Shown here one piece after another: positions 10,901-52,000 of a stretch of 64,000 nucleotides of DNA (its first letter is position 1; each line of letters starts with the position of its first letter). The notes beneath the pieces were generated by a model. That model had not been told where the DNA came from and did no database searches. It saw nothing but the letters and a program-made list of their open reading frames with translations. This DNA is from Branchiostoma floridae (Eukaryota > Chordata > Leptocardii > Amphioxiformes > Branchiostomatidae). The stretch spans positions 4,977,941 to 5,041,940 of the forward strand of contig NC_049981.1 in the NCBI RefSeq assembly GCF_000003815.2, written 5' to 3'. The position numbers were made by a program, and so were the translations under genes.

Positions 10901-13900
10901 TGTTGAACTCAGTAACGTTAAAGTTTGTTTTTAGTTGCCTTTGACGGTTTGACCTGAAATAGTGTTACGCTAAACTCCTGAAGAGAAGTTAAGTGACTGC
11001 TGCGATTATCATAGATATGCCCCTAAGAACTGATACAATATAAAGCCTTCTGAATAGTCTAAAATGCGAGAGCCTTAGGCGGGCTTCGCTCCCCCTGGCG
11101 GGAACACTGCTATATACGGGATCATGAGGCCCCGCTTATGAATATTAATTAGCCTTTGGCCTCCTCTTCGCTGATTGGCTAGGTCTTTGATTCAATTAAC
11201 TCTCCGGCTGACGCGCACAGGTGTGGCTCTGTGCGGGGTCACGGAAGGTCACGTCAGGAGGCCAAAAGAAAACAAATTTCCCCTCAGAAAAGTGCCAAAA
11301 TTAATCATTTTAAAGTTGTTTATGTCAAAAATTTTACTTGAATCTTGTTACCAAGTATCTAATGCCTATCTATACCAAATTTCAGGTCATTTAATTGTAA
11401 TACCAGGGTACAGGAGCCAAAAGTGTCCTTTTTTGGTCAAAAATTGGCCAAAAATCGCAAAAATAAGCATTTTGTTGCACTGTACACCAAAAGTGTTATT
11501 GAATTTATATGAAGGGATTATCAAGGCACATCTGTGTCAAATTTCAGCTCATTCGGTTGCAATACCAAGGTACAGGAGCCAAAAGTGTCCTTTTTTGGTC
11601 AAAAATTGGTCAAAAAATCGCTAAAATAAGCATTTTGTTGTACTGTACACCAAAAGTGTTATTGAATTTATATGGGGGCATTATCAAGGCACATCTCTGT
11701 CAAATTTCAGCTCATTTGGTTGTAATACCAGGGTACAGGGGCCAAAAGTGTCCCTTTTTGGTCAAAAATTGGTCAAAAAATCGCAAAAATAAGCATTTTG
11801 TTGTAGTGTACACCAAAAGTGTTATCGAATTTATATGGGGGCATTATCAAGGCACATCTCTGTCAAATTTCAGCTCATTTGGTTGTAATACCAGGGTACA
11901 GGGGCCAAAATATACAGTTTTGGTCTAAAATTGACCAAAAAATCTCAATAAAATCATTTTAGAGGCAGATATGAAAAAACTGAGAAAAAACATCAAGGTA
12001 TTGGCCCATTCTACCCCTGTGCTAAATTTCAGGTCATTCGGTCCAGGAACGGCGGAGATGAATCACTTTGAAGATTTGACAGGAGAAAGAAAGAAAGAAA
12101 GAAAGAAGAAACATTACGAATACAATATATTTCACCATACTATGTATGGCTGAAATATAAATAGTGAGTATGACCAGATTATCGGCTAATAACATTATTT
12201 ACTTACCACCTTTGCGCCCACCCGATCGAGTTTTGTTATCACTTTTAGCGTACGGTTTTCGACAAAAAACATCTAACTTCATTTTGTGGTCACTTGTTCA
12301 GCGATGTCACCTGATCTACATGGGAGAGTTCTGTTACCGGTGCTCGGCGTCAGTTCGCTACGGGAACCCGGACATCCTCCGCCGAGGGTACTGCGGCAGG
12401 TGCCCCTGCGCCGTCCGGACCCGCCTGCCGCTGCTTCATGGAAGGTATCATTAAGATTTATACGATATTTCCGTACAAAAAGTAAAGTTCGTACCAACAA
12501 GTTTGATACTCTGATCCATCCCAATGACCAGAAGCCTATGTCATGTGACCCGGATAGAAGTGTGACGTGGGCAACGGGTCAAAGGTACCAGGCAGTTGGT
12601 ATCGGCTCCTGTCTCTGTTGTGGAATGATTCATATCCTGATGAATATGGCTTCTTTCACTCCTCTTAGCATGGCAAAAAAATTGTAGAGTTGCTTCAAAC
12701 ACTTGTCACAGTGAGCTATGCAAAGGTTAGTTGTGACAGTACAGGCCGTTCTGATACTGTCGCACGTACAACTTGCGTGTTTCTCCGAAAGGCGGTTGTT
12801 CTGGCTATGCATGTACACATACAGGTTTATGCCAATACAGGCTCTACATAGCAAATCCTTGCCATTTAGGAGTGTATGTTTATTGTGGTTACAGTTTGCA
12901 AACTGGTCAACAGAAAAAGATGGTGCAGATATGGACATGTATTCCTCTCATTTTACACAGATTCGGACGTGATGTCAGCCAAACCACACAAGAAGACGAC
13001 AGGTAAAGTAAAGTCTATCAAGGTCGATTTCAATGTGATGAAGCTAGGATCGAAGCTATTATAGGGCCTTCACACTGAAACCGAATTAGCAGGAATCAAG
13101 CAGAACCAGCCGGAATGAAGTATTTGCAAAATTCGTGCCACATTCGGGTGGGAATTCCAAATGGACCCTATATCCCCATTACACGAGAGGGAATGAGCAA
13201 AAATGCCGTCAGAATGAAAATTCTTTTCTATTCCTAGTATTTTCTATTGGTAGTGTATTCTAGAAATTCTTACTACGTTCCAGATATTCTTTTGACCATA
13301 TTCTGGCCGGATTCGAGGTGGCTTGCCGTTTCGGTTCTCCATCGAATGAGCAAATGTGAGATGAGAATGTTTCGAATAATGTTGCAATGCCGTAGAATGC
13401 CATCATACTGCAGTTAGAATAGTTAAAATAGACTTAGAATACACTTCGAATGCCGTTCGATATTTGTCCACTTCAAATGCACCTCGAAAGTTTTTAGCAT
13501 GTCAAACATTTTCGGGCCAGCCAAAAGAACGGGCACAAATATCTGGAATGCATTGATAATTTCTAGAATACACTACGAATTCCCAGGAATAGACAAGAAT
13601 TTTCATTCTGACGGCATTCCGGCTCATTCTTGCTCTCGTGTGAAGGGGCCTTAAGATATAACACGTACTGCGAGCTTGAGCTGGTAGTAGTTGTACTTTC
13701 GTCGGATGTTTTTCCAACTACACACAATAGACCACTGTGACCTCTGCAACCGTATTCAACACCGAGTAGCTATCAGAGAACTATATGATAGTTGGACAAA
13801 ATGACCAAAAAGGTCCACAATAGAGACTGACCTAGTTATCCAACCAATGACGTTAGCATTTGAAGCCTTTCACCGCCAAAAAGTTGCCACAAAATGAACT

Positions 13901-44224: not shown

Positions 44225-44510
44225 ACTTTACTTTGGCCCTTCGCCCCGGTCGGAGCATAGGCCACCGATGATAGTCCTCCACTGCACCCGCCTCTGGGCC
44301 TTCTTCCTCAGGTCCTGCCAGCTGTTGCTGATACTCTTCATCTCCTCCTCCGTATCCCTTCTCCAACTGTTCTTGGGCCTTCCGTTTGCCCTGTGGGATC
44401 CATGTCAGAGCCTGGTGTGTGATGCTGGATGGTGGCTTCCTGACGGTGTCCTATCCAGGACCATTTTCTCTTGAGAATCTGACTGACCACTGGTTTTTGT
44501 CCTGCTCTAT
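44225..44510 (-). mobile_element. LINE C-terminal remnant
   Basis: Minus-strand frames give SWIGHTVRKPPSSITHQALT then WIPQGKRKAQ, and after frame changes DYHRWPMLRPG. This is the conserved tail of a common invertebrate endonuclease-reverse transcriptase LINE (WIGHTLRK…ITRQALTWNPQGKRKRG type). Degenerate. Confidence 0.7.
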
Positions 44511-44589
44511 CCCACAGCTCCAGGTTGCTGACTACAAAAATCCGAAAAACCCAAAATAACTCATTTTTAAAGTGATCTATAAAGAAAGT

Positions 44590-45130
44590 GTTGATTGGAC
44601 CCTGTGCTCATATGTCCAATGCACCTATGTACCAAATTTCAGGTCATTTGGTTTCTATACAAGGGCATAGGAGCAAAAAATATACATTTTTAGTCAAAAA
44701 TGGCCCAAACCCCTAAAATAACTAATTTTTTAAGCGATCTATGAAGAAAGTGTTGATGGTTTTCTGTGCTCATATGTTTAATGCACCTCTGTACCAAATT
44801 TCAGGTCATTAGCTTGTAATACCAGGGCACAGGAGCCCAAAATATACATATTTTGTCTAAAAATGACCAAAAACCCTAAATATCATAAATTCTAAGGCCT
44901 CTATCAAGAAAGTGAAAAAAATTGCCTGGGGGTATTTGCCAACTCTATGCCCATACCAAATTTCAGCTCATTTGGCCCCAAAATGAAAAAGTTGAATCCA
45001 ATAGAAGATTTGACAGGAGGAGAAGAAGAAGAGACAAAGGAAAAGCAATATATTGCAATCCCATACTGTAGTATGGATTGCAATATAATAATATTGCAAT
45101 CCCATACTATGTATGGATTGCAATATAATT
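44590..45130 (+). repeat. Tandem repeat with (GAA)n and terminal palindrome
   Basis: Two to three ~170-bp units (TACCAAATTTCAGGTCATT…AAAATATACAT) related to the 11380-11960 array. They end GAAGATTTGACAGGAGGAGA and then two copies of TTGCAATCCCATACT…GTATGGATTGCAATAT palindromes. Confidence 0.75.
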
Positions 45131-45134
45131 AGAC

Positions 45135-45870
45135 AAATGGCAAGAGGATTGGCAGATGAAACTACATCCTGACAAATGTCATGTCATGAGGTTCACACAT
45201 AAACGTAAACCAAAATTATATGATTATAGATTAGGAAACCACAATCCGACGGAAACCAGAAATCACAAATACTTGGGTGTTACCCTAAACAACCAACTAT
45301 CATGGTTCAACCACATAAATAACATTACATGCAAAGCAAACAAGACCCTTGGTTTCGTTAAGGGCAACTTATATGACTGCCCCAAAAAGGTCAAACAAAA
45401 AGCCTACAGTAGCCTGGTTAGACCCCATCTTGAATATGCTTGTGCAGCTTGGGATCCCCATCATAAAGACCACATTTCCAAGGTCCAAAAAAAGAGCGGC
45501 TAGATTTGCTTCAAATGTCCCTAACTGTCCAAATTCTCAGTCAAGCGCCACTAAACTAGTCTCGGACCTGGGTTGGGATACACTCAAAAATAGAAGAACA
45601 GCCAACAGACTTACCATTATCCAGAACTCTAGACATGACCTCCTAGCCCTTCCGGTCGATTATTACTTGCAGCTGAACCCTAGGCAATCTCGACACAATC
45701 ATCCAAATTCATACAAACCCATTAAGACTAATAAAGACTGCCTCAAATATTCTTTTTCCCAAGAACAACTATCGATTGGAATACTTTACCATTCTCTACC
45801 ACCCTTCAATCTAACCCCATCAAGTTTAAGGAAGAGGAACATCTGAGGAACAACCAATAAAACAACAGCA
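45135..45870 (+). pseudogene. CR1/jockey-type LINE reverse transcriptase, 3' part
   Basis: The RT C-terminus is clear: KLHPDKCHVMRF, NHKYLGVTLNNQLSWFNHI, KANKTLGFVKGNL, AYSSLVRPHLEYACAAWDPH, then after a +1 shift in an A run at about 45488-45494, RAARFASNVP and LGWDTLKNRRTANRL. The endonuclease and RT active site (YxDD) are missing; a 5'-truncated, frameshifted copy on the plus strand. Confidence 0.9.
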
Positions 45871-46690: not shown

Positions 46691-46940
46691 TAGAAATGAG
46701 ATGAGATGAGATCTTTATTTGGTTTTCACAGTTAATACAGCAAAAAACTGAAATTTTAAACCAAATTACATACCTCCTATTTAAAGTACATGCAACAGCT
46801 CCGAGGAGATTACAATGACCAGATAACCGCAAAGCAGATTCGCCATCTAGCTGCCAACAGAAGGTCTTGGAAGGAACTTACAGTCGCCTGTGCTGAAGGC
46901 CAACCGATGATGATGAGTGGACGTACGTCTTCAATCACGT
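46690..46940 (+). mobile_element. LINE C-terminal remnant
   Basis: QQLRGDYNDQITAKQIRHLA and NRRSWKELTVACAEGQP match the extreme C-terminus of an RT-LINE polyprotein. A TTTATTTGG-type tail of another element, in reverse, precedes it at 46700-46740. Confidence 0.6.
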
Positions 46941-47289
46941 TACTCAAAACAACTGTGCTATACCTTCTACCGCAACTCGAGCCGTAAACATGGTCCATTA
47001 CTCATTCACCTCACATGTAACGCCATCGTCTAACGTTTAATTTTCTGGGCCATAGGTCATTTGAAGGTCCCCGGTTGAATTTAGTTACAACAAGAGGGAC
47101 CGCACTTGTAGTGTCGACCATAAACCGTGAGCTGCACGGACGACTGAGCCTACCAAAGAAACTGCCAAACACACACACACATACTGCCAAACACACGCAC
47201 GCACACAATAAAACAACAAGAGCAACTTATCAAGCAAGTGACGTTATATTATTTGTTCCAAACTTTTGTCACGTAATGGTACAAGTTGT

Positions 47290-47422
47290 TCTACCCAGAT
47301 GTTCTTGAGTTATGCTGACCACAAATATCCGGAAACGCAAACACACACACAGACACACACACAGACACACACACAGACACACCCAAAAGTATATCTCCAT
47401 TTTTCATGGAGATAAAAATATA
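47290..47422 (+). repeat. Interspersed repeat end with hairpin
   Basis: GTTATGCTGACCACAAATATCCGGAAAC, (ACACAC)n, then TATCTCC-ATTTTTCAT-GGAGATA. Same family as 35625-35993. Confidence 0.75.
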
Positions 47423-48565
47423 CAGACTGAGACAAAAAGAAACAAGTGACCGTAGGTAACAAACTTTGTGACGTAATCATGGTCTGTCAGTTGTGTTGTT
47501 TTCAGTGATGTGTGACATTGTGTTTATTATTCATCAACAACCATACTGTTACATTCCTCTGATAAACCAACAACCTTGGCCCGCGGCATCAGATGTTGCC
47601 ATAAATTTACCATAAATTTTATACAATTGTGATACTCAAAGTAGAACAAAATGTGTCAGAAATAACAGAAATATCATTAATAATATATATATAAATAATA
47701 ATAATAACGATAATAATAACTAGTTGTTGGGTTCTAATGGTTGAATCAGGAGGGAACTGGGGTCAAAGGTGAGGCTACGTTTCTTTCATAGAGCGAGCTT
47801 TTCTCGGAGAATGAGCCGAACAACCCCGTTTTCTTTGAAAGGTTATAAACTAGACCCAAGTGACTTTCTTGTGGAGAACTGAGCAGAATTTTTAAGATTG
47901 AAATATGGGTAAGTACTTTTTTCATACCTTCATTCCGTTATTTTAACATGCTTTCCAATGAGCAGCTCTAACACCGATGTGTGCCCTATACACAGCGACA
48001 GCTGTGAATAGCTGACAACACGACGTGCACAAAACACGCAAATCAGGCAACATCTGCTTGACAGTATCCAATTACCACAAGGCCTAGACAACGCAGACTT
48101 GTACCAATACACCGAAAGACGTACATTTTGTAGGGGTGATTTCTGACATTATTTCATCGATTATAACAACAGCTACGGCCAAATGAAAGGTACGTGCATC
48201 ATTTCACAACGGTGTACAGGCGACCTGCCAAACCACATACGAATGCGGCAAACGGAACATAGAGATATAGGTGCGAACGCTGACCGAAAAAACAATTCAC
48301 AATAATTTGTCGACGGAGGTTACCCTCCAGTCACAAAGTAATAAAGTAAAATGGAATTCCAAATCAACAAATCATTTCGTGAATACATGGAACTATCAGA
48401 CTACAACTACATACATGGAGATACATGGAAATGTTAGACTACAACTGCCAGGTGAAACGTAAAGGTTCGAGACTTATACTGTTTTGCCATTTTATCGGCG
48501 CCATTTTCTCTTCGGAAGGGGACCACATTCATAGCACACAAACTGCGTCATGCTACACGAATATT
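47423..48565. other. No gene recognised
   Basis: Contains (ATA)n at 47680-47720 and short frames without motifs. Confidence 0.4.
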
Positions 48566-48569
48566 ACGT

Positions 48570-48962
48570 TCAGCACTGGAACGTTCCAGTGCTTTATAAA
48601 CGTCAGCACTGGAAGTCCAGAGCTGAAGTTTTTACAGCACTGGTCTTCCAGTGCTGAAAAGTTCCCGAGCACTGGTAAATCCAGTGCGGAACCCGTTACT
48701 TTTGTATATCAGCACTCGCTTCCGGTGCTGACGGCGGTTTCAGCACTGGGTAACCAGTACTGAAGGACTTTTGAACTAGCTCGCCACCTCTCCACCGCAA
48801 GTTCAGCACTGGTACCCGAGTGCTGACGGCAGTTAAGCACTGGAAAACCAGCGCTCGGAGAAGTTCAGCACTGGAAATCCAGTGCTCGCATTGGGTTCAG
48901 CACTGGAAAACCAGTGCTGAGGCCGATTCGACCCATCGATTCAGCACTGGAACACCAGTGCG
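48570..48962. repeat. Array of eleven short hairpins (CAGCACTGG / CCAGTGCTG)
   Basis: Eleven imperfect palindromes of about 20-23 bp, each CAGCACTGG + 3-5 bases + CCAGTGCTG with variants: 48571, 48604, 48635, 48668, 48710, 48741, 48803, 48836, 48866, 48898, 48942 (start positions). Spacers are 8-45 bp and mostly unrelated. GCGGAACCCGTTACTTTTGT follows unit 4 (48685) and again unit 11 (48960), indicating segmental duplication within the array. It ends about 75 bp past the SLC22 copy B stop codon on that gene's downstream side, where homology to copy A begins at about 48985. Confidence 0.93.
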
Positions 48963-49037
48963 GAACCCGTTACTTTTGTATACTTGCGGGCCAAAGACAA
49001 TTATCACAAATCCTGTCTTAGCCCAACTTTGCTCAGA

Positions 49038-52000
49038 TCATTCCTCGTTTACGATACCGTCTTCCTTCCCGAAATTCTCGCCGTCCTCGATGGTAGCCGG
49101 AAGTGCCTTCCCCTTGGTTTCCGGTAGGAGCAGCGCCAGCAGTCCGGCGGCGACCGAAGTTCCCCCGAAGATGACGTAAGGCATCGGCGTCCAATAGACG
49201 CCCAGCAGGTTGATAAATGGCGCGACCATACCGCCGACACGAGCGCTCATGGAGGACATACCGATCCCGATTTGCCTGTGTTCATAATAACATAAAGGCT
49301 TTATTGCAAATTCATGCCCATGTGGTTAATTGCAAGTGAACAAAATCAAATACATGAAGTGATTGAAAACAGGTAAATAATCTAAATTCTAACATACAAA
49401 GATTAAGTGAATGTGTGTACATATAGAATATCGAATACGATTCTAAAACTACATTAATATTGCGGGGTTTGACTTCTTCTTTGAAAACAGTTGAAAATGA
49501 AATGTCCCACATTTTCTATTATAGATTGATTCGTTGATCTTAGCAGGAAGTGTGTCTTTTGTGTGTTTTTTTAACAGTGAAAAGTTTGGTTTGATTTCGG
49601 GCACTCATAATGACACAACAACAACTACAACTGATTATCGTTTTTCATTCACAATTGAGACGATGTGGCACTGCACTCAAAGTTGATAACAACAGCGGAC
49701 AAAAACATTTTAACAAAGGACAGACAGAAGGTAAAGGTGATCCCATAGCCCTTTTGAGGCCGTAAAGGCAGTGGGTTGTTATCCACTGCAGTGTCTAGGG
49801 CACGATATCGGGAGGCGGAGCCCTTTTCTCTCCTCCCACGGCATTTGATCACCCCAGCCGAAGTTAGGCACACACATTGGTGGGATAAGACAAGTGAAGT
49901 GCTTTTTACGAGGGCACAATATCGACATGACAGGATGTCAGCTCCGAACCTCTACTTTATACAGGAAATGCCAGAAAATAAGTTGGCAATCACGCTATGG
50001 AACAACAAAGCTGCAAAGTATGCCATCTACAACAGGGCGCAACAACCTTTTTTCTCAGTCGGGACGGGGGGTGACATTGATATCTAACAAACTTTGACCC
50101 ATTGCTAACGTCACATATACATCCAGTCACGTGTCCAGAGCAATTGGACAAAGGTAAAGAGGACTGGGTGATTCAGTTGAAAGTTATTGTGAGGCCATTT
50201 TTATTTATCTGTTAAAGAACAAATTAATATTTACATGATATATGATAGCATACCTGACAACAGTAGGGAAGATCTCCGCCGAGAAGACGTACACAACAGC
50301 GAAAGAAGCGGTGATGCAGAACTTGCCGGTCATGGCCAGGGTTGTGGTCATCCAGCCGAGGTCTGTGAAATACATGCATTCATGAGATAAGGATTGACAT
50401 GTCCATTGAAAGCACACTTTAGAAGGGAATCGATAGAGGGCGCTTCTTTGTGGGAACAGCAGAAAGATTTTAATCCAATTGAAGACATGTGTTACATCAT
50501 TTAGAAATGTTTGGGAAAGAGTATTCACTTCCATATTTCTCGGTCCCTCCAGACCGCTTCTCATCACAGTTTGCGAAAGTGTTCTCAAGATTGGCGGCCA
50601 GGTATGTTTGCCAGAGGATAGGCTATGTAAGACCTTGTATCGTTGTCGTACGAGGTATTCTGTTATGACTATCTTTTGCTACAAAATCGTTCTTTCTTGT
50701 TGGACCGGTCCAGCAAAAAACGGACCTGAAAAAAATTTAGTGGACCGGATGTTGGAACAATTTGAAAATCAACATATTATATCGGCAGACGTTGACGTGT
50801 TCTGGGCTTGCAGGTCCAAGAAAAGAGCAAGAGTGAAGTAGAGGAGAGTTGATAGTTGTATTGTTATAAACATTCTACGGTCAAACAAAGTGGTCTGAAA
50901 CAAAGGCAGTTACATGAAGGTGGAATTTTGAAACGCCAATGGACGTCGGATACTCTACCAAACAGAATCCTTTATAGCAAAATGGACCATTGTTTTGAGT
51001 ATTGCCCATTTATAAGTTTTTACAGTTAATTAGGTCCACGTTCAGCTCCGGATCTGGACCTGATTCTCTGGACCTGAACCGCACCTGTACCTGAATTTTC
51101 TGTTCCGGTGCCCACCCAGTAATGGGGGTGCTGTGTGAGTTGGAGGACGTACTTACGTTTGGGAATGAAGAAGGCCACGATACAGGCGACGCCTCCAAAC
51201 AGAAGCATCAAGCATAAGGGCCAGCGTCTTCCGAACCTGCAACGGACAGAAGCAATTGGATAGAAACAAGGATAAAGCTGAGTTGCCACGTTAACCGTTC
51301 ACCGATTCTTTCTTCTCCAGGTTGACAATATTCAAGTACAATTCAATGTCTACAACTTGACAAAAACGACATTTACTTCCGGACATCCATCACTTTTCTT
51401 AAGCGTCACAAGATATTGCTAACTTTCACTCTTCTTCCGCGTAACCAGCCTTCTAGGGATGCTGAAGAAGAATGATTGCTGTCGCTGGAAACGCCCGGAA
51501 GTAAATCTCCGTTCTTTTATCCAGTTGTAGAGATTGAATTTACTTGCAAACACCGTTACATCATACCTATTCAGGATGAAGATGGATAGTATGTATGCTG
51601 GAATTTCGACGAAACCGGAAATGGCGAAGTTCAGGTACATGTTCCCGCTCAGGGCGGCCGTGTTGAGGGATATCCCATAATACACCAGGGTGTTGACGAT
51701 CCTGCATTGAAGGTGAAAGGTCACAATAAGACGCATGCGCGGTGGGTGGATTTTCATCTACGCACAGTTTTTTAAGAATTATATTTGCTTTTGGACAGAT
51801 GAGGACAATGTGGCACTGCACTCAAGTTAGTAGCTTATATCAACAGTGCTACATACACAGTAGAGACGGAAGGTAAAGGTATTTTTTTCTTTCTTTTACC
51901 TTCCCGACCGAAGTCAGGTACCAATTTTTACACCTGGGTGAAGTGGGGAAGGTCGTGTAGCCTTTGCCAAGGGCACAACGTCGGGGCACGGCGGCTATCG

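What the first reader, a model, noticed from the sequence alone, without database searches (positions are those of the whole stretch)
48570..48962. Array of eleven short palindromes beside the SLC22 copy B 3' end
Eleven 20-23 bp units of the form CAGCACTGG-n-CCAGTGCTG occur within 390 bp. Arms covary in places (for example TGGAACGTTCCA, TGGTACCCGAGTG), spacers differ, and one spacer block (GCGGAACCCGTTACTTTTGT) is itself duplicated. SLC22 copy A has no such array. It could be a seeded hairpin repeat (each unit a minimal fold-back), a cluster of protein-binding palindromes, or structured RNA if the 3' UTR extends through it. I know of no named family with this layout.
Basis: seen in the sequence. 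Interest (0 to 1): 0.8.

Follow-up and report, generated by a model that had tools for sequence, protein, structure and literature searches.

The report
Palindrome array ending a DNA transposon
The eleven palindromes beside this gene are one end of a broken copy of a jumping DNA element found across this genome, where they most likely served as docking sites for the enzyme that moves it; it is a fairly ordinary find with an unusually regular layout.

Summary
The array is real: 11 palindromes of 21-24 bp, consensus CAGCACTGG-N4-CCAGTGCTG, at 48571-48963. The claimed arm covariation is not there.

It is the right arm of an interspersed, non-autonomous DNA transposon with 21-bp terminal inverted repeats (182 in the genome at up to 1 mismatch, reversed control 0) and a palindrome array at each end. 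Of 49 complete copies, 36 have a perfect 9-bp target-site duplication and 41 at least 8 of 9; cross-paired flanks give 1 of 2352. The window copy has lost its left end.

The arms look needed for mobility: private substitutions hit arms and inter-unit DNA alike, substitutions shared by copies avoid the arms (66:9 against 54:35, p = 8e-5; left arrays p = 0.003). Most unit spacings fall near whole helical turns.

Best reading: dimeric transposase-binding sites of a Mutator/Foldback-like element. No autonomous partner was found, so the superfamily is inferred.

The parts
46925..48987 (+). Remnant of the non-autonomous transposon: interior pieces and right arm; left TIR and left array are missing
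   Evidence: Blast to copy L026: window 46925-47278, 47208-47289 and 48355-48964 align; no left TIR in the window at up to 3 mismatches. 47290-48354 is only partly matched (48048-48344 to L033 and L031, 74%)
48571..48963 (+). Right subterminal array of 11 palindromes, consensus CAGCACTGG-N4-CCAGTGCTG
   Evidence: Unit centres 32, 31, 32.5, 42, 31.5, 63, 31, 31, 32 and 44 bp apart
48967..48987 (-). Right terminal inverted repeat GCAAGTATACAAAAGTAACGG (outer edge 48987)
   Evidence: Exact match. 182 genome matches of the TIR at up to 1 mismatch, 0 for the reversed control
48693..48713 (-). Internal TIR-like copy inside the array (2 mismatches)
48988..48996 (+). Presumed right target-site-duplication copy GGGCCAAAG; no left partner remains
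   Evidence: Position follows from the 9-bp duplications of other copies. The only other exact match in the window is at 44231 on the other strand
49038..49325 (-). Open frame with the host gene's terminal exon (MFS-like C terminus); 50 bp between its stop codon and the element end
   Evidence: (MFS_1, E 9.9e-5, below the curated cut-off)

Best explanation
The array is the right subterminal region of a non-autonomous cut-and-paste DNA transposon (969-2582 bp in 41 of 49 complete copies). SHOWN: sharp ends, 21-bp TIRs, 9-bp target-site duplications, a palindrome array at each end, heterogeneous interior, no Pfam domain inside the one long copy scanned throughout, and stronger constraint on arm sequence than on inter-unit sequence across rounds of transposition. 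INFERRED: each 9-4-9 palindrome is a two-fold-symmetric site for a dimeric DNA-binding domain of a transposase supplied in trans, probably Mutator (MULE)/Foldback-like. Sites set about 3, 4, 5 or 6 helical turns apart would put the bound dimers on one face of the DNA, helping the two ends synapse and giving specificity. The window copy has lost its left end and is probably immobile, a fossil 50 bp past the MFS-like stop codon.
For: Dispersal with the same spacers (39 other scored places). Shared boundaries and TIR. 36 of 49 complete copies have a perfect 9-bp duplication and 41 of 49 have 8 or more of 9; none fits perfectly at 8 or 10 bp; cross-pairing gives 1 of 2352. Arrays at both ends in the 38 copies scanned. 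Private substitutions per site equal in arms and between units, shared ones depleted in arms: right arrays 66:9 against 54:35, p 8e-5 (CpG excluded 58:9 against 41:20, p 0.011); left arrays 83:26 against 65:50, p 0.003 (CpG excluded 82:24 against 57:44, p 0.002). Spacings: 622 of 680 intervals are 31-32.5, 42, 52 or 63 bp, within 1 bp of a multiple of 10.5; recurrent spacing classes are closer to phase than private ones (p 0.0004, classes sorted by hand). Precedents: Muta1 with subterminal tandem repeats and 8/9-bp TSDs (PMC5225508, passages); Tm1 with composite TIRs and 9-bp TSDs (PMC3169594, passages); Galileo, whose long TIR holds several transposase-binding sites (PMC3688188, passages).
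Against: No autonomous copy was found. None of the 27 MULE-domain matches in the genome lies within 30 kb of any of 174 listed termini of this family (nearest 31.7 kb), and the interior of the 9.86-kb copy has no Pfam family at E up to 0.1 in six frames. Protein binding is not shown. The phase argument rests on about five independent spacing classes, one of which (44 bp, 38 of 680 intervals) is off by 2 bp; tested on those five alone p is 0.013. The arm/shared test treats variants as independent and depends on aligning arrays of variable unit number: in the left set private variants are far denser (0.77 per arm site) than in the right set (0.28), a sign of alignment noise, and the 4-bp spacers there (24:16) look like inter-unit DNA while in the right set (21:6) they differ significantly neither from arms nor from inter-unit DNA.
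Confidence: 0.85

Rival explanations
1. Same transposon, but the array is bound by a host factor (for example a dimeric repressor or enhancer-binding protein) rather than by the transposase.
For: Palindromic, phased sites fit any dimeric DNA-binding protein; the constraint result shows need for spread, not which protein binds. No transposase of the family was found.
Against: Arrays sit at both ends next to the TIRs, the usual place of transposase sites; a Foldback-like element, Galileo, has transposase sites in such repeats (PMC3688188, passages).
Confidence: 0.2
2. The hairpins themselves matter (foldback or cruciform DNA, or structured 3'-UTR RNA of the MFS-like gene).
For: The block folds to -227.6 kcal/mol, z -15.4. 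Minus-strand AATAAA/ATTAAA at 47523, 47036 and 46714 lie beyond it, so a read-through 3' UTR could include it. One compensated double change was seen where 0.22 double changes were expected by chance.
Against: That is 1 compensated change in 3782 arm-pair cells in 33 copies; in the window units 10 of 11 one-sided changes break the pair and none is compensated; no Rfam match near a gathering score. Copies lie across the genome, so a role tied to this gene did not shape the array.
Confidence: 0.06
3. Array born by simple tandem duplication with no function: a minisatellite carried passively inside a transposon.
For: Unit number varies in 31-bp steps between copies, as in tandem duplication or unequal exchange.
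Against: Inter-unit spacers differ while arms are kept; shared substitutions avoid arms in both arrays; the same unit is at both ends of copies.
Confidence: 0.08

Closest known systems
Muta1 and other Aedes aegypti Mutator-like elements (PMC5225508; passages, one of them from the abstract; section 11)
   Same: 8- or 9-bp TSDs with little or no target preference; a short terminal motif followed by an array of subterminal repeats; non-autonomous derivatives with variable unit number and variable interior; classed there as type 2 Foldback
   Different: There 9 copies of a 12-bp tandem repeat with 3-4 bp spacers within a 145-bp TIR; here a 22-bp palindrome every ~31 bp, only 21 bp of clear TIR, and no transposase known for the family
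Tm1 Mutator/Foldback family of root-knot nematodes (PMC3169594; passages seen)
   Same: Mostly 9-bp TSDs, composite ends with a variable number of short repeats, MITE-like members and members encoding a transposase
   Different: 13-15 bp tandem repeats, other terminal motifs; its transposase is known
Galileo (P superfamily, Foldback-like; PMC3688188, passages seen)
   Same: Internally repetitive ends; repeats shown there to hold several transposase-binding sites
   Different: P-superfamily transposase with THAP domain, ends over 1 kb; its TSD length is recalled as 7 bp, not from a call
Rehavkus (outgroup to MULEs in PMC6446971, passages seen)
   Same: 9-bp TSD, a minisatellite before the 3' TIR
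   Different: 26-400 bp TIR, reported only in arthropods and annelids, PHD-finger transposase; minisatellite at one end
Drosophila Foldback (FB) elements (recalled, no call)
   Same: Recalled as having 9-bp TSDs and arms built of short repeats including a 31-bp repeat
   Different: Long inverted arms; sequence not compared here

Membership tests
Non-autonomous cut-and-paste DNA transposon (TIR element) | Terminal inverted repeats shared by dispersed copies with sharp ends | tested here: met
   21-bp TIR, 182 genome matches at up to 1 mismatch, control 0; of the first 20 loci the left end was found in 19 and the right end in 20; boundaries
Non-autonomous cut-and-paste DNA transposon (TIR element) | Fixed-length target-site duplication | tested here: met
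   9/9 in 36 of 49 complete copies, 8 or more in 41 of 49; 0 perfect at 8 or 10 bp
Non-autonomous cut-and-paste DNA transposon (TIR element) | No transposase gene in the copies | tested here: inconclusive
   Interior of the 9863-bp copy: no Pfam family at E up to 0.1 in six frames. Of the 49 complete copies, 46 are 2582 bp or shorter; these, L031 and L032 were not scanned with a family library
Mutator-like element (MULE) | TSD of 8-11 bp | tested here: met
   9 bp; range quoted from PMC6446971
Mutator-like element (MULE) | MULE transposase (PF10551) in an autonomous member with the same ends | tested here: inconclusive
   27 MULE-domain matches exist in the genome but none lies within 30 kb of any of 174 listed termini; partners with diverged ends could be missed and their flanks could not be fetched
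Foldback-type (composite, internally repetitive ends) | Ends made of short repeats in variable number | tested here: met
   Left and right arrays with unit number varying in 31-bp steps, 15-25 units per copy in 38 copies
Foldback-type (composite, internally repetitive ends) | Long inverted repeat between the two ends | tested here: inconclusive
   Only the outer 21 bp is clearly inverted between ends; inner arrays share the palindromic unit, which matches in either orientation
Merlin (TSD 8-9 bp, recalled) | Merlin-type transposase (PF12762, assignment recalled) between the same ends | not tested
   Genome search asked twice, not answered
Structured RNA or 3'-UTR hairpin array | Compensatory changes in arms | tested here: not met
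   0 in the 11 window units; 1 of 3782 arm-pair cells in 33 copies, 0.22 double changes expected by chance

The most novel reading that the evidence does not exclude
Each end of the element is a helically phased scaffold: a series of two-fold-symmetric sites placed 3, 4, 5 or 6 turns apart on one DNA face, on which transposase dimers assemble cooperatively, so that both the palindromes and their phase, not merely their number, are selected through transposition. Recurrent spacing classes sit near whole turns while private indels do not (p 0.0004), and a 63-to-42-bp variant differs by two whole turns.
Probability: 0.3. Interest if true: 0.55.

Novelty: new member of a known kind. Interest (0 to 1): 0.3.

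Why it matters
It turns an apparently unique structure beside a gene into a transposon end that can be tested. PMC3688188 says it is untested whether the tandem repeats of Foldback and Phantom elements act as binding sites (passage). This family, with 49 complete copies seen here and 15-25 sites in each of the 38 counted, lets the need for such sites be probed from sequence alone; the private/shared substitution test done here already argues that they matter. It also warns that strong fold-back scores and palindromes near a 3' UTR can come from transposon ends.

Tried and rejected
Arm covariation: rejected. Rfam: only matches far below gathering scores. A mobiliser inside the element: the interior of the 9863-bp copy (L029+L030) has no Pfam family at E up to 0.1. 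The 7773-bp copy (L031) is long because of reverse-transcriptase-like (LINE-like) frames inside it, which I recognise by eye from the open frames; no family scan was run on them. Ten single open frames from long loci gave a reverse transcriptase in L056 (RVT_1, E 2.7e-18), in the same frame ALKBH8_N just over its cut-off (21.6 against 21 bits), and otherwise only matches below cut-off; three of the ten gave nothing. MULE genes as partners: 27 matches, none near a listed terminus. Paper searches (I saw the listings, and passages of PMC3688188, PMC6446971, PMC5802833, PMC5225508 and PMC3169594) showed none that names an amphioxus family with this unit; the amphioxus MITE paper I recall (LanceleTn) is not held, so it was not compared, and no repeat library such as Repbase was available. 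That the genome is amphioxus (Branchiostoma floridae) is my inference from size (513 Mb) and from recall; no tool names it, and one listing was not read further. The first extraction of right arrays failed on a bad filter.

Rows dropped: one search used 33 right arrays (of 39 sequences L031 was left out beforehand, 4 had no hit to the inner unit, 1 was too short); one search used 43 of 59 candidates, the rest lacking a right array of 350-600 bp by its filter; one search used 49 of 59 loci that had both ends by its criteria, and in at least one of them (L009) it took an internal TIR copy as the end, which counts as a failure; one search used 50 of 59 loci. The set is not random: L009-L028 were the best matches to the window array, the others were chosen from terminus lists.

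Phase test on five independent classes: p 0.013 with the 44-bp class, 0.0005 without it; I rely on the former. Variable sites as such do not differ between arms and inter-unit DNA (p 0.11 without CpG); the difference lies in the shared ones.

Full report
CHECK OF THE OBSERVATION. The array exists. A scan for CAGCACTGG-N3..6-CCAGTGCTG finds 11 units at 48571-48963, 21-24 bp each, nine of them 22-23 bp long. The 9-4-9 pattern with up to 3 mismatches occurs 8 times in the whole window, all in this block, against 0.05 expected. The duplicated block is 28 identical bp at 48681-48708 and 48955-48982. TGGTACCCGAGTG is a one-sided change; TGGAACGTTCCA is a unit whose 6-bp centre happens to be self-complementary.

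WHAT IT IS. A genome search with 48560-48970 gives 224 matching pieces from the 40 candidates scored (of 435): the window itself and 39 other places, 80-94% identical over 296-411 of the 411 bases, so with the same spacers. Aligning 20 loci with flanks shows bounded elements with an array at each end and a variable interior; the left end was found in 19 of the 20 and the right end in 20. The ends are GCAAATATACAAAAGTAACGGTCTCCTCTG on the left and GCGGAACCCGTTACTTTTGTATACTTGC on the right, a 21-bp inverted repeat GCAARTATACAAAAGTAACGG. The left terminus occurs 85 times and the right 89 times at up to 2 mismatches, the 21-bp TIR 182 times at up to 1; reversed-pattern controls are 0 in each.

TARGET-SITE DUPLICATION. 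Of 59 loci examined, 49 had both ends by the criteria. 36 of these 49 carry a perfect 9-bp duplication and 41 at least 8 of 9; none is perfect at 8 or 10 bp, and mismatched pairing of flanks between copies reaches 8 of 9 in 1 of 2352. This is a cut-and-paste signature. Median length of the 49 is 1480 bp; 41 lie between 969 and 2582 bp.

THE WINDOW COPY. It keeps the right TIR (48967-48987), the right array, and interior pieces matching L026 from 46925 on; no left TIR is found in the window. A second, internal TIR-like copy at 48693-48713 accounts for the duplicated block. Fifty bp separate the right end from the stop codon of a minus-strand frame (49038-49040) with a weak MFS_1 match, so the array sits just past a coding end by insertion. 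Whether the transcript runs through it is unknown; minus-strand poly(A)-signal hexamers lie beyond it at 47523, 47036 and 46714.

HOW IT MOST LIKELY WORKS. Three results point to recognition sites needed for movement. First, constraint: in 43 right arrays, private substitutions (arisen after insertion, in the main) are as dense in arms as between units (66 in 234 sites, 54 in 186 sites), but substitutions shared by copies are 9 in arms and 35 between units (p 8e-5; without CpG sites 58:9 against 41:20, p 0.011). In 50 left arrays the counts are 83:26 against 65:50 (p 0.003; without CpG 0.002); private variants are much denser there, a sign of alignment noise. TIR sites show 11 private and 0 shared in the right set and 7 and 1 in the left. 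The 4-bp spacers (21:6 right, 24:16 left) are not clearly different from inter-unit DNA. So variants in arms arise but are seldom passed on. Second, symmetry without covariation: only 1 of 3782 arm-pair cells in 33 copies is a compensated change, with 0.22 double changes expected by chance, so the sequence of both half-sites is what is kept. Third, spacing: in 38 copies plus the window, 622 of 680 neighbour distances are 31-32.5, 42, 52 or 63 bp, near 3, 4, 5 and 6 turns of 10.5 bp; 38 are 44 bp, the outermost right step, which is off by 2; 20 are other values. Recurrent classes are nearer to phase than private ones (p 0.0004, classes sorted by hand). With only five independent classes the direct test is modest (p 0.013).

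From this I infer dimeric transposase-binding sites in both ends, bound in trans by the enzyme of an autonomous relative. Galileo's repetitive ends contain several transposase-binding sites, and that paper states that for Foldback and Phantom elements this is untested (PMC3688188, passages).

WHAT IS MISSING. The autonomous partner was not found. The 9863-bp copy with a perfect duplication (L029/L030) shows no Pfam family in its interior in six frames at E up to 0.1. The genome does contain MULE transposases, 27 matches over cut-off with several long open frames, but none within 30 kb of the 174 listed termini of this family (nearest 31.7 kb). The Mutator assignment therefore rests on the 9-bp duplication and on end architecture (compare PMC5225508; PMC3169594; TSD range 8-11 bp, PMC6446971). 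Merlin, another superfamily that I recall with 8-9 bp duplications, could not be tested.

COMPARISON AND NOVELTY. As a kind of thing it is known: short-TIR, repeat-ended, 9-bp-TSD non-autonomous elements with variable interiors. The 22-bp palindromic unit at helical spacing differs from the 12-15 bp tandem repeats of Muta1 and Tm1. No paper seen in the searches made names this family, but Repbase could not be consulted, so it may well be catalogued there. Verdict: new member of a known kind, interest 0.3.

Noticed in passing
G000 C2:20560291, C13:5001006, C3:13218489 and 24 more: 27 MULE transposase (PF10551) matches over cut-off in this genome, some in long open frames (up to 1748 aa). PMC6446971 (passage) reports limited evidence for MULEs in chordates and says that MULE transposases could not be detected for the earlier Branchiostoma floridae report; if this genome is amphioxus, the two disagree.
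   Followed up: partly
L029 and L030 (C7:7614968-7624830): A 9.86-kb member of the family with perfect 9-bp duplication whose inner ~9 kb has no Pfam family and little similarity to the other copies compared: captured host DNA or an unrecognised gene.
   Followed up: partly
L054, L056, L065: Three loci share, at roughly 92-94% identity over most of 8-9 kb, a unit in which a short palindrome array with this TIR is followed by reverse-transcriptase and minisatellite-like sequence; between L054 and L056 the similarity continues past the TIR, so the array travels inside a larger repeat.
   Followed up: partly
L023 insertion site: The copy's duplication tccagtgcg lies in sequence resembling the palindrome arm (ccagtgcgg): an apparent insertion into a related array.
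   Followed up: no
window 48693-48713: Internal copy of the right terminus inside the array, so the right arm looks like two ends in tandem.
   Followed up: partly
window 11376-11960 and 44545-44914: Two distant tandem arrays with periods of 163 and 162 bp whose consensus units share similar text (CAAATTTCAG..CATT..), perhaps one satellite or transposon family.
   Followed up: no
window 45050-45129: Two 40-bp copies, each nearly palindromic (consensus ATATTGCAATCCCATACTATAGTATGGATTGCAATAT), beside reverse-transcriptase-like frames at 45129-45846 (RVT_1 only at E 0.031).
   Followed up: no
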